The notes beneath the pieces were generated by a model that was given only the letters and a program-made list of their open reading frames with translations, did no database searches and was not told the origin of the DNA. Shown here piece after piece: positions 16,727-25,208 of a stretch of 64,000 bases of DNA. The stretch comes from Solirubrobacter pauli (GTDB lineage: Bacteria > Actinomycetota > Thermoleophilia > Solirubrobacterales > Solirubrobacteraceae), in the NCBI RefSeq assembly GCF_003633755.1, contig NZ_RBIL01000002.1, positions 992,001 through 1,056,000 on the forward strand, written 5' to 3'. How positions within the stretch are numbered: the first letter of the stretch is position 1; every line of letters begins with the position of its first letter. A program made the translations under genes and the position numbers.

Positions 16727-16900
16727 ATGGAGCACGATCCCGGTACCTGCACCGCCTGCCGCGGCAGCGGCGAGTTGATCTCCGGCCTCGGCGGGGAGCC
16801 GCACCGCGTGCGCTGCCCGTGGTGTGAGGGGACGGGCCGCTTCGACGCGGCCCGCGACGCGCAGGCCCCTGCGCGCGAAGGCCACCCGGCGGACAGCTAA
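16727..16900 (+). CDS. 57-residue DnaJ-type zinc-finger protein
   Basis: A short gene with two treble-clef half sites, CTACRGSGEL (residues 8-17) and CPWCEGTGRF (30-39). These match the CxxCxGxG repeats of the DnaJ central domain, which bind one zinc between them. The rest is an acidic/Ala tail. It has no J domain, so it is not a co-chaperone of the usual kind; single CxxCxGxG pairs also occur in small redox or RNA-linked proteins. The TACCCT box 9 bases upstream and the strict Cys spacing support a real gene. Its TAA overlaps the -35 of the pilin operon promoter. Confidence 0.75.
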   Translation: MEHDPGTCTACRGSGELISGLGGEPHRVRCPWCEGTGRFDAARDAQAPAREGHPADS

Positions 16901-16924
16901 AGCGTGTGCGCACCCGGTCGATGA
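16898..16924 (+). promoter_or_regulatory. Sigma-28 (WhiG/FliA-type) promoter of the minor-pilin operon
   Basis: TAAA at 16898-16901, a 15-base spacer, and GTCGATGA at 16917-16924 against the consensus TAAA-N15-GCCGATAA. The pilin ATG at 16935 is 10 bases after the -10. The -35 overlaps the preceding stop codon. Confidence 0.6.
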
Positions 16925-21290: not shown

Positions 21291-21690
21291 GGATCTCCAA
21301 GGTGCCTATCTGCCGGCCCTCGTTCACGAGGACCAGCGGGTAGGCACCGCGCGTTTGGGCCAGCATCGCGAACTGCGCGGGCAGGCCCGCCTCGAAGGAC
21401 TTGGTCTGCAGGTCGCCGAGCGCCACGCTCGCCGGGCCGCGGCCCTCGACGACGATCTCCACGTCGTCGCCCAGCTCGGCCTCGATCGTCTGCGGCGTGA
21501 GCGACTCCTCGTCGACGTCGATCGTCGCGCTGACGTCGAACTCGTCGGGGTCGTCGGAGATGCCCGTCTGCGCGGTGGCGGGCGGATCCGCGTCCCGCTG
21601 CGTGGGCGATCGCGGCGGCGAGACCGTGACGACGAGCACCATCAGGCCGATGATCGCCAGCACCAGAAGTGTCATGCGTCGGGTCAACAC
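21286..21690 (-). CDS. Membrane-anchored small protein, cupredoxin-like tail
   Basis: 134 residues from GTG 21690; an ATG at 21675 would remove five. One N-terminal membrane helix (MTLLVLAIIGLMVLVVTVS) is followed by an acidic linker (residues 25-60). A short beta domain follows, with ESLTPQTIEAELGDDVEIVVEGRGPASVALGDL and a final YPLVLVNEGRQIGTLEI strand. The layout resembles plastocyanin/cupredoxin-like domains, but I see no Cys/His copper ligands, so any such domain is non-metal. It lies between two pilin operons and faces the opposite way. Function unknown. Confidence 0.6.
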   Translation of the reverse strand: MLTRRMTLLVLAIIGLMVLVVTVSPPRSPTQRDADPPATAQTGISDDPDEFDVSATIDVDEESLTPQTIEAELGDDVEIVVEGRGPASVALGDLQTKSFEAGLPAQFAMLAQTRGAYPLVLVNEGRQIGTLEIR

Positions 21691-21698
21691 CCCATACG

Positions 21699-21704
21699 AG
21701 CTTA
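21699..21704 (-). promoter_or_regulatory. -10 box TAAGCT, leaderless geometry
   Basis: On the minus strand TAAGCT ends 8 bases before the GTG at 21690 and supports that start over the ATG at 21675. Confidence 0.4.
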
Positions 21705-21712
21705 TCCGGGGT

Positions 21713-21739
21713 TAAGTCCGTTCTCAGGGGTGCCGATAA
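21713..21739 (+). promoter_or_regulatory. Sigma-28 (WhiG/FliA-type) promoter of pilA
   Basis: TAAG at 21713-21716, a 15-base spacer, and a perfect GCCGATAA at 21732-21739. Transcription would begin near 21746-21750, just before the riboswitch. Confidence 0.72.
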
Positions 21740-21756
21740 AAGGGGTAGCCAGTACC

Positions 21757-21862
21757 GAGGTGTCAAGGGCAAATCATCCGCGAGGGTGAGGCGCAAAGCC
21801 ATCGGGGCTCCAGCGGATCTGGAGCCGGCCGGGCTGCCACTTCCGGCAGAACGGGACCAAGG
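21757..21862 (+). ncRNA. GEMM-I (cyclic-di-GMP-I) riboswitch in the pilA leader
   Basis: The aptamer core is intact. It has GGGCAAA (21768-21773), a P2 stem CATCC-GCGA-GGGTG with a GNRA tetraloop (21775-21788), and the hallmark CGCAAAGCC (21792-21800). A long P3 hairpin follows, GGCTCCAG/CTGGAGCC (21806-21826), and then GGGCTGCC. This is the order and spacing of the class I cyclic-di-GMP aptamer, including the tetraloop for docking. GGGCTG at 21831-21836 can pair alternatively with CAGCCC at 21877-21882, which suggests a switching helix. It precedes a pilin gene, a common GEMM target. Confidence 0.87.
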
Positions 21863-21896
21863 ACCTGGCGTGTCAACAGCCCTACAGGCCCAACGA

Positions 21897-21911
21897 TCCC
21901 TTCAGGAGGGA
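21897..21911 (+). promoter_or_regulatory. Ribosome-binding-site hairpin before pilA
   Basis: TCCCT (21897-21901) pairs with AGGGA (21907-21911), and the arm and loop hold the strong AGGAGGG site (21904-21910), 10 bases from the ATG. The site could be hidden or freed by the upstream aptamer, giving translational control. Confidence 0.5.
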
Positions 21912-21920
21912 CATCCCCCA

Positions 21921-22349
21921 ATGCTCCACAAGCTCCGCGCGCGCATGCAGGACGAGAAGGGCTTCACGCTCATCGAGCTCCTCGTCGTCATCCTGATCAT
22001 CGGCATCCTCGCCGCGATCGCGCTCCCCGCCTTCCTCAACCAGCGCGAGAAGGCCCAGGACTCCACCGCCAAGAGCGACGTCCGCACGGCTCAGACCGCC
22101 ATGGAGACCTACTACACGGACCACCAGTCCTACGAGGACGCCGACGTGGCCGCCCTCGTCGCCATCGAGCCGGCGCTGACCAACGCCAACGAGCTGACGG
22201 TCACCGGCGCCACCGAGAACGGCTACACGCTGTCCGTCGAGTCCAAGGGCTCGAACAAGGTCGTGTACTCGATCGAGAACACGGCCGGCACGGTCAGCCG
22301 CAGCTGCGACAAGGCCAACACCGGCGGGTGCGGCGACAGCACCTGGTAG
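21921..22349 (+). CDS. pilA: Major type IV pilin
   Basis: 142 residues. The leader MLHKLRARMQDEKG is followed by |FTLIELLVVILIIGILAAIALPAFL, a textbook N-methylation and polymerisation helix with Glu5. The globular domain holds a C-terminal Cys pair (RSCDKANTGGC) and ends DSTW. A strong AGGAGGG site, a riboswitch leader, its own promoter and a strong terminator set it apart from the minor-pilin operon and point to high regulated expression as the main pilus subunit. Processing would need PilD, encoded 1.2 kb downstream. Confidence 0.93.
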   Translation: MLHKLRARMQDEKGFTLIELLVVILIIGILAAIALPAFLNQREKAQDSTAKSDVRTAQTAMETYYTDHQSYEDADVAALVAIEPALTNANELTVTGATENGYTLSVESKGSNKVVYSIENTAGTVSRSCDKANTGGCGDSTW

Positions 22350-22376
22350 CCCTCAGCGCTCACTGACGTTCTTTCC

Positions 22377-22404
22377 GCGAAGCGGGCCCCCGGGCCCGCT
22401 TCGC
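22377..22404 (+). terminator. pilA terminator
   Basis: A perfect 13-bp inverted repeat, GCGAAGCGGGCCC at 22377-22389 and its complement at 22392-22404, with a 2-base centre. It is followed by CCGTTTAA and starts 28 bases after the pilA stop. Confidence 0.8.
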
Positions 22405-22433
22405 CCGTTTAACCCCTGGGGTCCCGGCTCTAT

Positions 22434-22460
22434 CAAGCCGCGGACCGGGTCTGCCGATGG
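22434..22460 (+). promoter_or_regulatory. Sigma-28 (WhiG/FliA-type) promoter of pilM
   Basis: CAAG at 22434-22437, a 15-base spacer, and GCCGATGG at 22453-22460. The pilM GTG follows after 7 bases, so the transcript would be leaderless. Confidence 0.62.
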
Positions 22461-22467
22461 AACACCT

Positions 22468-23514
22468 GTGTTCCGCAAAAAGCGTTCCCCCCAGAGCAGC
22501 GTCGTCGGGCTCGAGCTCGACGCGGGCCACGTCGCGGCCGCCGAGGTCAGCGTCGATGGCGCCCTCACGCTGACCCGCGGCGCGGTCGCCGAGCTTCAGC
22601 CCGGCGTGATCCGCGACGGCGAGGTCGCCGACCCCATCGCCCTGGCGGAGGCGCTCAAGTCGCTCTTCGCCGACAACGAGCTGCCCCGGCGGGTCCGGCT
22701 CGGCATCGCCCATCAGCGCATCGTCGTGCGCACGCTCGACCTCCCGACGGTGGTCGAGGACCCGAACGCGCTGACCGCCGCCGTCCGCGAGGCGGCGCCG
22801 GACCACATCCCGATGCCGATGGAGGAAGCCGTCCTGGACTTCCAGTCGCTCGGCACGGTCGACACGCCGCTCGGGCCGCGCACGCGCGTGGTCGTCGTCG
22901 CGGTGCGCAAGGAGATGGTCGAGCGCGTCGCCGCCGCCGTCGACGGCGCCGGCCTCGAGATCGAGGGCATCGACCTGTCCGCGTTCGGCATGGTCCGCGC
23001 GCTCGCGTCCGAGCACGAGGGCGCGGTGCTCTACATCAACGTCGCCGGGCTCACCAACGTCGCGGTCGCCAACCGGGACGGCTGCCTGTTCACGCGCGCC
23101 TCCGCCGGCGGCGTGGAGACGATCGCGAGCACGCTGGCCGAGCGCCGCGGGCTCACGCTCGAGCACGCCCGCGCCTGGATGACGCATGTCGGCCTCGTCG
23201 CGCCGCTCGAGGGCATCGAGGGCGACATGGACCTCGTGTCAGCTACGCGCACCGCGCTCGCCGACGGTGTCCGCGAGCTCGCCGACGGCATCCGCACGTC
23301 GCTGAACTTCTACCGCACGCAGGACGCGGCCGAGACCGTCGAGCTGGGCGTCGTCACCGGCCCGGCGATCGCGATCCCCGGCTTCGTGGAGACCCTCGGC
23401 GACGCGCTGCGCCTGCCGCTCGAGGCGCGTGTCGTCGAGCACGCCGAAGCGGCCGAGGACAACGTCGGCCGCCTGACCGTCGCGGCCGGCCTTGCCGTCG
23501 CCGAGCGTCCCTAG
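22468..23514 (+). CDS. pilM: Type IV pilus assembly protein PilM
   Basis: 348 residues from a GTG start. It has the actin-like ATPase fold with VVGLELDAGHVAAAEV in place of the usual VGLDIGSxxVK phosphate loop, RRVRLGIAHQRIVVRTLDLP, and APDHIPMPMEEAVLDFQ. TRVVVVAVRKEMVERV and EIEGIDLSAFGMVRAL are also typical of PilM. It acts on the inner face of the membrane and binds PilN in the alignment complex. No ribosome binding site is present; the sigma-28 promoter ends 7 bases before the GTG. pilD follows after a short gap. Confidence 0.92.
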   Translation: MFRKKRSPQSSVVGLELDAGHVAAAEVSVDGALTLTRGAVAELQPGVIRDGEVADPIALAEALKSLFADNELPRRVRLGIAHQRIVVRTLDLPTVVEDPNALTAAVREAAPDHIPMPMEEAVLDFQSLGTVDTPLGPRTRVVVVAVRKEMVERVAAAVDGAGLEIEGIDLSAFGMVRALASEHEGAVLYINVAGLTNVAVANRDGCLFTRASAGGVETIASTLAERRGLTLEHARAWMTHVGLVAPLEGIEGDMDLVSATRTALADGVRELADGIRTSLNFYRTQDAAETVELGVVTGPAIAIPGFVETLGDALRLPLEARVVEHAEAAEDNVGRLTVAAGLAVAERP

Positions 23515-24315: not shown

Positions 24316-24343
24316 GGCCCTAGGGGCGCGACCCCAGCTGGTT

Positions 24344-24370
24344 CAAGACGGCTCCGCGCACTGCCGATAG
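24344..24370 (+). promoter_or_regulatory. Sigma-28 (WhiG/FliA-type) promoter of pilN-pilO
   Basis: CAAG at 24344-24347, a 15-base spacer, and GCCGATAG at 24363-24370. The pilN GTG follows after 7 bases, the same geometry as pilM. Confidence 0.62.
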
Positions 24371-24377
24371 AAGGGGC

Positions 24378-25208
24378 GTGAGAGCCGTCAACCTCCTTCC
24401 CCCAGACACGCGCGGCGCGTCCAAGTCGTCCGCCGAGCTTGCCACTGGCCCGGAGGCCAAGGGCGGCGCCGGTCCCTTCGTGGTCCTCGGCGTCCTCGCC
24501 GCCTGCGTGGCAGGCGTGGCGGGCGTCGTCACCACCGACAACACGATCAAGCAGCGCAACGCCGATCTCGACCAGCTCGCGCAGCGCCAGCAGGCGATGC
24601 AGGCGCAGGTCACCAAGCTCAAGCCGTACGCCGACTTCGACGCCGCGGCCAAGGCCCGCGTCCAGACCGTCCGCGACATCGCCGGCTCGCGCTTCGACTG
24701 GGAGCAGGCGCTCCGCGACCTCTCGCGCGCCCTGCCGCAGGACGTCACGCTGACCGAGCTCAGCGGTGACATCGCCACCGACGCCGGTGGCCAGGGCGGC
24801 GCCCTGCGCACCGCGATCTCCGCCCCGGCGATCACCCTCACGGGCTGCACCGGCGGTCAGACCCAGGTCGCCCGCCTGATGGCGCGGCTGCGCGACGTCG
24901 ACGGCGTCACGCGCGTCTCGCTGTCGAGCTCGGTCAAGGCGAAGATCGACGACAACACCGCCGACGACAAGGCCACCGAGACCGAGAAGCGCCTGAGCGC
25001 GCCCTGCGGCAAGGGCAAGCGCCCGACCTTCGAGGTCGTCATGTTCTTCGAGGGCGAGGCCGCGAAGGTGGCCACGACCCCCGTCACCGCGACCGGCACG
25101 GTCAGCGAGACCCCGACCCCGACGCCGACCGCGACGCCTGAGGGCGGCGCGAGCTCCGGCGACGACAGCACCACGACCACGACGACCACCGACGGGGACT
25201 CGAAGTGA
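24378..25208 (+). CDS. pilN: Type IV pilus assembly protein PilN
   Basis: 276 residues. The PilN N-terminal motif VRAVNLLPPD binds PilM. A single membrane helix spans about 33-52, followed by a coiled coil and a periplasm-type ferredoxin-like domain (RFDWEQALRDLSRALPQDVTLTEL). An external tail of Thr/Pro/Ser repeats ends in seven Thr in a row. It links the cytoplasmic PilM ring to PilO. The stop overlaps the pilO GTG in GTGA. Confidence 0.9.
   Translation: MRAVNLLPPDTRGASKSSAELATGPEAKGGAGPFVVLGVLAACVAGVAGVVTTDNTIKQRNADLDQLAQRQQAMQAQVTKLKPYADFDAAAKARVQTVRDIAGSRFDWEQALRDLSRALPQDVTLTELSGDIATDAGGQGGALRTAISAPAITLTGCTGGQTQVARLMARLRDVDGVTRVSLSSSVKAKIDDNTADDKATETEKRLSAPCGKGKRPTFEVVMFFEGEAAKVATTPVTATGTVSETPTPTPTATPEGGASSGDDSTTTTTTTDGDSK

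What the first reader, a model, noticed from the sequence alone, without database searches (positions are those of the whole stretch)
21713..21920. pilA may be under two cyclic-di-GMP controls on one transcript
The perfect GCCGATAA promoter would start an RNA whose first 100 bases fold as a GEMM-I aptamer. It ends in a hairpin that covers the AGGAGGG site. WhiG activity is itself reported to be set by cyclic-di-GMP through RsiG. One signal could then act both on initiation (via sigma) and on translation or elongation (via riboswitch), making a logic gate or a sharpened switch for the major pilin only. I know of no described case with both layers on one gene.
Basis: partly seen in the sequence, partly recalled or inferred. 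Interest (0 to 1): 0.85.

Follow-up and report, generated by a model that had tools for sequence, protein, structure and literature searches.

The report
Pilus gene under two c-di-GMP controls
In a soil bacterium of the genus Solirubrobacter, the main pilus gene is probably controlled twice by the same signal molecule (cyclic-di-GMP), once through the protein that starts transcription and once through an RNA switch at the start of its message, and the same pairing recurs in many relatives.

Summary
Rfam's c-di-GMP-I (GEMM-I) model hits 21758-21841 (57 bits, gathering score 35). A flagellar/WhiG-type promoter, TTAAG-N15-GCCGATAA, ends 18 nt upstream. The genome encodes WhiG, a separate flagellar FliA, and single-motif RsiG, the c-di-GMP-dependent anti-sigma of WhiG. 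The pairing is not an accident of one locus. In 94 GEMM-I loci of the class, 24 carry the promoter within 85 nt (at most 2 mismatches), against about 0.5 expected. In a scan of 84,980 species for -10 plus GEMM-I, the unrequested -35 TAAA appears at spacer 15-16 in 47 of 80 loci and at no neighbouring spacing. Promoter and aptamer are conserved before pilA in further Solirubrobacter and in non-flagellated relatives whose only flagellar-clade sigma is WhiG. Three transcription units of the pilus cluster carry the promoter; only pilA has the riboswitch. Corrections: other GEMM-I genes in the genome share the design; the Shine-Dalgarno hairpin is no stronger than chance; there is no intrinsic terminator, so the switch's direction is inferred (OFF, as in sister families). 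V. cholerae tfoY has both c-di-GMP layers on one gene, but on separate transcripts. RNA binding and transcription start are untested.

The parts
21712..21716 (+). -35 element TTAAG (TAAG; consensus TAAA)
   Evidence: 1 mismatch to TAAA, spacer 15 to GCCGATAA. TAA[AG] is kept in 4 further Solirubrobacter while the spacer diverges.
21732..21739 (+). -10 element GCCGATAA, WhiG/FliA (sigma-28) type
   Evidence: Exact consensus; 21 copies in 7.1 Mb. GCCGATA[ACG] in all Solirubrobacter orthologues aligned.
21745..21748 (+). predicted transcription start region
   Evidence: Inference: 6-9 nt past the -10. The conserved P0 helix starts here.
21748..21752 (+). 5' strand of extra outer helix P0 (GCCAG)
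   Evidence: Pairs with CTGGC 21865-21869. RIBOSUM alifold consensus over 17 pilA leaders includes it, with compensatory pairs such as GUCAG/CUGAC in L116 and CGCUCCG/CGGAGCG in L104. Plain alifold did not include it.
21758..21841 (+). GEMM-I (c-di-GMP-I) riboswitch aptamer
   Evidence: RF01051, 57.1 bits. P1 extends to 21757/21843.
21865..21869 (+). 3' strand of P0 (CTGGC)
21842..21903 (+). expression-platform region: two blocks near-invariant in the genus around a variable linker, no intrinsic terminator
21904..21910 (+). Shine-Dalgarno AGGAGGG, able to sit in a 5-bp hairpin with UCCCU upstream
   Evidence: Sequence. Stability not above shuffles.
21921..22349 (+). pilA, major type IV pilin, 142 aa
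   Evidence: Pfam N_methyl and ComP_DUS. PilM, PilD, PilN and PilO genes follow.
16898..16924 (+). second WhiG-type promoter (TAAAG...GTCGATGA) before the minor pilin operon
   Evidence: 2 mismatches. A promoter at a similar place in at least two relatives, L311 and L314. No aptamer.
24343..24370 (+). third WhiG-type promoter (TCAAG...GCCGATAG) 7 nt before the GTG of pilN, leaderless-like
   Evidence: Present at the same position in all 5 Solirubrobacter clusters read. No aptamer.

Best explanation
pilA is transcribed by RNA polymerase carrying WhiG from 21712-21739, and every such transcript begins with a GEMM-I c-di-GMP riboswitch. When c-di-GMP is high, RsiG bound to c-di-GMP holds WhiG, so initiation at pilA, the minor pilins and pilN falls. 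The same c-di-GMP also occupies the aptamer on pilA transcripts that are made and most likely lowers their expression. The two layers then add up to a steep, fast-closing repression of the major pilin, while the rest of the machine is under the sigma layer only. Shown here: promoter and aptamer sequences, presence of whiG, rsiG and fliA, conservation, and enrichment. Inferred: that WhiG rather than FliA reads it, that the RNA binds c-di-GMP, and the OFF direction.
For: GEMM-I. Promoter rarity and placement. WhiG at C2:2063512 (307 bits to S. venezuelae WhiG 6pfj/6pfv against 187 to E. coli FliA), FliA in the flagellar cluster. RsiG with motif E-S-R-H-D, matching 7lq2-7lq4 and 6pfj, conserved in 237 of 299 class genomes. 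Class-wide enrichment of the promoter before GEMM-I, 24/94 against about 0.5 expected. Independent -35 test in the GTDB scan, 47/80 at spacer 15-16 and none at 7-14 or 17-21. The pilA promoter-aptamer pair is kept in 4 further Solirubrobacter and in genomes with no fliG and WhiG as the only flagellar-clade sigma, such as G047, G107, G136, G093 and G294. Three promoters in the pilus cluster, as reported for Rubrobacter (PMC8325347). OFF direction: sister-family pilA riboswitches carry an intrinsic terminator whose 5' arm holds GGUUUGCC, the exact complement of aptamer GGCAAACC, in 5 of 5.
Against: FliA is present here and flagellar-cluster matches share the consensus, so FliA could read or share the promoter. 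The window leader has no intrinsic terminator, and its SD hairpin is not above chance, so the output of the switch is not explained. The sister-family pilA leaders with clear terminators mostly lack a good WhiG promoter, so direction is borrowed across lineages. The aptamer lacks the usual P3 tetraloop receptor, which may weaken binding. One RsiG-positive genome with the promoter (G180, incomplete) showed no WhiG hit. No experiment.
Confidence: 0.66

Rival explanations
1. FliA, not WhiG, drives pilA in this flagellated species. The promoter ties pilin synthesis to flagellar gene expression, and the riboswitch is the only direct c-di-GMP input.
For: A FliA gene lies in the flagellar cluster, and promoter matches in that cluster have the same consensus. 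FliA and WhiG are reported to share promoter specificity (PMC8325347). In other phyla the same promoter-GEMM-I pair stands before flgM and flagellar genes in genomes where no RsiG was found.
Against: Several relatives with the same pilA promoter and aptamer have no fliG and only one flagellar-clade sigma, the WhiG type. Rubrobacter marinus has one flagellar-clade sigma, RsiG, and GEMM-I loci with exact promoters.
Confidence: 0.2
2. The riboswitch is an ON switch, opposing the sigma layer: transcription is highest at low c-di-GMP and RNA output at high c-di-GMP, giving a band-pass (incoherent) response.
For: The direction of this leader is unresolved: no terminator, and P1, P0 and the CUGCC/GGCAG hairpin compete in ways that allow either outcome. 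ON-type c-di-GMP riboswitches exist elsewhere (general knowledge).
Against: Sister-family pilA leaders are built as OFF switches by terminator and antiterminator pairing. Opposing layers would waste transcripts.
Confidence: 0.2
3. The aptamer is a passive or relic element, and only the sigma layer matters.
For: P3 tetraloop receptor missing; no evident expression platform; SD hairpin not special.
Against: Core residues and both flanking blocks are near-invariant across five Solirubrobacter species while the spacer and linker vary, and P2/P3 show compensatory changes.
Confidence: 0.08

Closest known systems
[quoted passage not shown] 2021, PMC8325347)
   Same: Same sigma, same single-motif anti-sigma, same promoter consensus, three promoters in the pilus cluster.
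   Different: No riboswitch is mentioned in that paper (0 occurrences). Here the pilA transcript also carries a GEMM-I aptamer.
Vibrio cholerae tfoY: VpsR promoters and Vc2 GEMM-I riboswitch (PMC7371385)
   Same: One gene, c-di-GMP acting on both initiation and a GEMM-I riboswitch.
   Different: VpsR-driven transcripts lack the riboswitch, so the layers are on separate transcripts and partly opposed. The protein layer is an activator, not a sigma/anti-sigma pair.
Clostridioides difficile c-di-GMP riboswitches (flgB operon with sigD; PMC3649979)
   Same: GEMM-I before motility genes, linked to a flagellar sigma.
   Different: The riboswitch controls production of the sigma; a c-di-GMP-gated anti-sigma on the same transcript is not described there.
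Bdellovibrio FliA attack-phase promoters and merRNA (PMC3627812)
   Same: Promoter TTAAG-N16-CCGATA, identical in layout to this one; an abundant c-di-GMP riboswitch RNA in the same phase.
   Different: merRNA is not listed with a FliA promoter and no conserved downstream gene was found.

Membership tests
GEMM-I / c-di-GMP-I riboswitch (RF01051) | Covariance-model score above the family threshold, full length | tested here: met
   57.1 bits against 35, model positions 1-87
GEMM-I / c-di-GMP-I riboswitch (RF01051) | Ligand-contact residues G20, A47, C92 (G20 for c-di-GMP rather than cGAMP) | tested here: met
   G21768, A21795, C21837 from the alignment; residue equivalence as in PMC11218506. 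The G20/A20 ligand rule is general knowledge.
GEMM-I / c-di-GMP-I riboswitch (RF01051) | GNRA tetraloop docking into the P3 receptor | tested here: inconclusive
   Loop GCGA present; receptor insert absent in the alignment
GEMM-I / c-di-GMP-I riboswitch (RF01051) | c-di-GMP binding | not testable with these tools
   Needs ITC or in-line probing
GEMM-I / c-di-GMP-I riboswitch (RF01051) | Expression platform coupling aptamer to output | tested here: inconclusive
   No terminator; SD hairpin not above chance; P0 helix conserved
WhiG/FliA-type promoter | TAAA, spacer 14-16, GCCGATAA | tested here: met
   One mismatch in total; placed before pilA and conserved
WhiG/FliA-type promoter | Transcription start 6-9 nt past the -10 | not testable with these tools
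   No transcript data
RsiG-WhiG c-di-GMP switch | WhiG-clade sigma distinct from FliA | tested here: met
RsiG-WhiG c-di-GMP switch | RsiG with E(X)3S(X)2R(X)3[Q/H](X)3D motif | tested here: met
   EQEVSYRRRILHGKID in the candidate; matches RsiG chains 7lq2-7lq4
RsiG-WhiG c-di-GMP switch | c-di-GMP-dependent complex that blocks WhiG in this species | not testable with these tools
   WhiG/RsiG complexes shown for Conexibacter and Rubrobacter pairs in PMC8325347

The most novel reading that the evidence does not exclude
A flagellar-clade promoter fused to a GEMM-I aptamer is a conserved regulatory module of deep-branching Actinomycetota. There it places initiation (RsiG-WhiG) and RNA output (riboswitch) of the same transcript under one second messenger across a regulon of pilin and secreted-protein genes, and the sigma-28/GEMM-I fusion recurs without RsiG in Armatimonadota and Desulfobacterota, including before flgM.
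Probability: 0.55. Interest if true: 0.8.

Novelty: new variant of a known kind. Interest (0 to 1): 0.68.

Why it matters
Both parts are known, but a second messenger that gates the sigma factor and also the transcript that sigma makes has, to my knowledge and in the papers searched, not been described. It makes a clean question testable: why sense the same molecule twice on one RNA? Possible answers are steepness, fast shut-off of transcripts already made, or differing affinities that set order within the pilus genes. The comparison is built in, because two other pilus promoters in the same cluster have the sigma layer only. The recurrence in other phyla suggests selection for joining this promoter class to this riboswitch class.

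Tried and rejected
SD-sequestering hairpin as a conserved device: present in most order-level pilA leaders, but folding energies equal shuffles and are weaker than at non-pilin controls, so not claimed. Intrinsic terminator in the window leader: none. CCUGG/UCAGG pairing of the leader with the SD region: seen in few relatives, dropped. GEMM-I as a chance hit: rejected by score and conservation. GTDB-scan hits in Shinella, Limnohabitans, Beijerinckiaceae, Bacteroidetes and similar look like chance matches (no -35) and carry no weight. I located RsiG with a hand-made motif probe, then confirmed it with the real protein against RsiG structures. Sites of the 21-site GCCGATAA list without a good -35 were not pursued.

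Full report
What is there. Rfam finds one RNA family in the window, GEMM-I, at 21758-21841 with 57.1 bits. It lies between an exact GCCGATAA (21732-21739, -35 TTAAG at 21712) and pilA (21921-22349; N_methyl/ComP_DUS). PilM, PilD, PilN and PilO genes follow and minor pilins precede. There is no sigma-70-like promoter and no intrinsic terminator in 21690-22470. The ligand-contact residues (G20, A47, C92 equivalents) are G21768, A21795 and C21837; the P3 tetraloop receptor is missing.

Organism. The window lies in a 7.1 Mb genome. A same-genus genome (G232) shares a 45,552-base contig length and GEMM-I locus with Solirubrobacter deserti CPCC 204708, so the genus is Solirubrobacter (inference).

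Is it more than chance? The genome has five GEMM-I aptamers and 21 GCCGATAA sites. Two sites lie directly upstream of an aptamer, and two more aptamers have GCCGATCA or GCCGACAA at the same place. Over 299 genomes of the class, 118 have GEMM-I. Of 94 loci read, 24 have TAAA-N14-16-GCCGATAA with at most two mismatches within 85 nt; Markov shuffles and other windows of the same loci give 0.4-0.55 percent. Related genomes are not independent, but the hits cover many genera. A scan of 84,980 species asked only for GCCGATAA and a GEMM-I core (87 stretches). The -35, which was not asked for, then appeared as exact TAAA at spacers 15-16 in 47 of 80 readable loci, and at none of spacers 7-14 or 17-21. 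The set includes Rubrobacter, Solirubrobacter, Conexibacter, Gaiellales, Armatimonadota, Desulfobacterota and Atribacteria.

Which sigma? Two flagellar-clade sigmas pass the curated cut-off. One sits with FliD, FlaG and FlgEFG-type genes and is FliA. The other sits between a tyrosine recombinase and an EF-G gene and matches Streptomyces WhiG far better than FliA (307 against 187 bits; the FliA gives only 173 bits to WhiG). RsiG was found with a motif probe. The protein carries EQEVSYRRRILHGKID, fits the published motif with the allowed H, and matches the solved RsiG chains. It is in 237 of 299 class genomes and in the Rubrobacter genomes tested, but was not found in the Armatimonadota, Desulfobacterota and Atribacteria genomes tested. 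Among genomes with pilA behind GEMM-I, G047, G107, G136, G093 and G294 have no fliG and a single WhiG-type sigma, yet keep the promoter with 1-3 mismatches. In those WhiG is the only candidate. In the window's own flagellated species FliA remains possible.

Conservation at pilA. In four further Solirubrobacter species (G299 matches G232 closely) the -35, the -10, the aptamer and two leader blocks are kept, while the promoter spacer and a linker vary. A RIBOSUM consensus fold over 17 pilA leaders of the order adds an outer helix P0 (GCCAG 21748-21752 with CTGGC 21865-21869) that begins about where the RNA should start, with compensatory changes in L116 and L104; the default fold did not include P0. 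The pilus cluster has two more promoter matches, before the minor pilins (16898) and before pilN (24343). The pilN one is in all five Solirubrobacter clusters read, the minor-pilin one at a similar place in some, and neither has an aptamer. So within the cluster the second layer is reserved for the major pilin.

Other targets. In this genome the other GEMM-I genes encode secreted CAP, cellulase-like and subtilase proteins; Rubrobacter marinus has exact promoters before a subtilase-like and a repeat protein (names from the sequences, not from a family search).

Mechanism. c-di-GMP arms RsiG to hold WhiG (PMC8325347), so the sigma layer lowers transcription at high c-di-GMP. The direction of the RNA layer is not readable here. 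In five sister-family pilA leaders a terminator contains GGUUUGCC, the complement of aptamer GGCAAACC, which is an OFF design; those leaders mostly lack a good WhiG promoter. By analogy the best guess is OFF, hence coherent repression.

Novelty. The papers searched show the sigma layer alone on pili (PMC8325347, no 'riboswitch' in the text). V. cholerae tfoY has both layers, but VpsR-driven transcripts lack Vc2 (PMC7371385). I found no report of both on one transcript; the library holds open-access papers only.

Noticed in passing
L157, L162, L169, L170, L171, L193, L195, L205, L207, L214 (Armatimonadota/Fimbriimonadales and alike): A GEMM-I aptamer behind a TAAA-N16-GCCGATAA type promoter stands before small MQIS/MKIS proteins; two tested (L169, L171) are FlgM, the anti-sigma-28 factor. 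A c-di-GMP riboswitch on flgM would feed back on sigma-28 itself.
   Followed up: partly
L068, L069, L129, L131, L135 (pilA leaders of families f8/f9): Intrinsic terminators whose 5' arm holds GGUUUGCC, exactly complementary to the aptamer's GGCAAACC: a readable c-di-GMP OFF switch on pilA.
   Followed up: partly
window 24343-24378: WhiG-type promoter whose -10 ends 7 nt before the GTG of pilN, suggesting a leaderless mRNA; same spacing in the Solirubrobacter clusters read.
   Followed up: partly
window 21748-21752 with 21865-21869: Extra helix P0 enclosing the GEMM-I domain in the order's pilA leaders, with compensatory changes in some relatives.
   Followed up: partly
G000 C2:1572782-1572809 (L015, L022): The only other exact TAAR-spacer-GCCGATAA in the genome; no plausible ORF start was found just downstream.
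   Followed up: no
G000 C1:1698907, C1:393491, C3:231293: GEMM-I before secreted cellulase-like, subtilase and CAP-domain proteins, behind full or near GCCGATAA boxes.
   Followed up: partly
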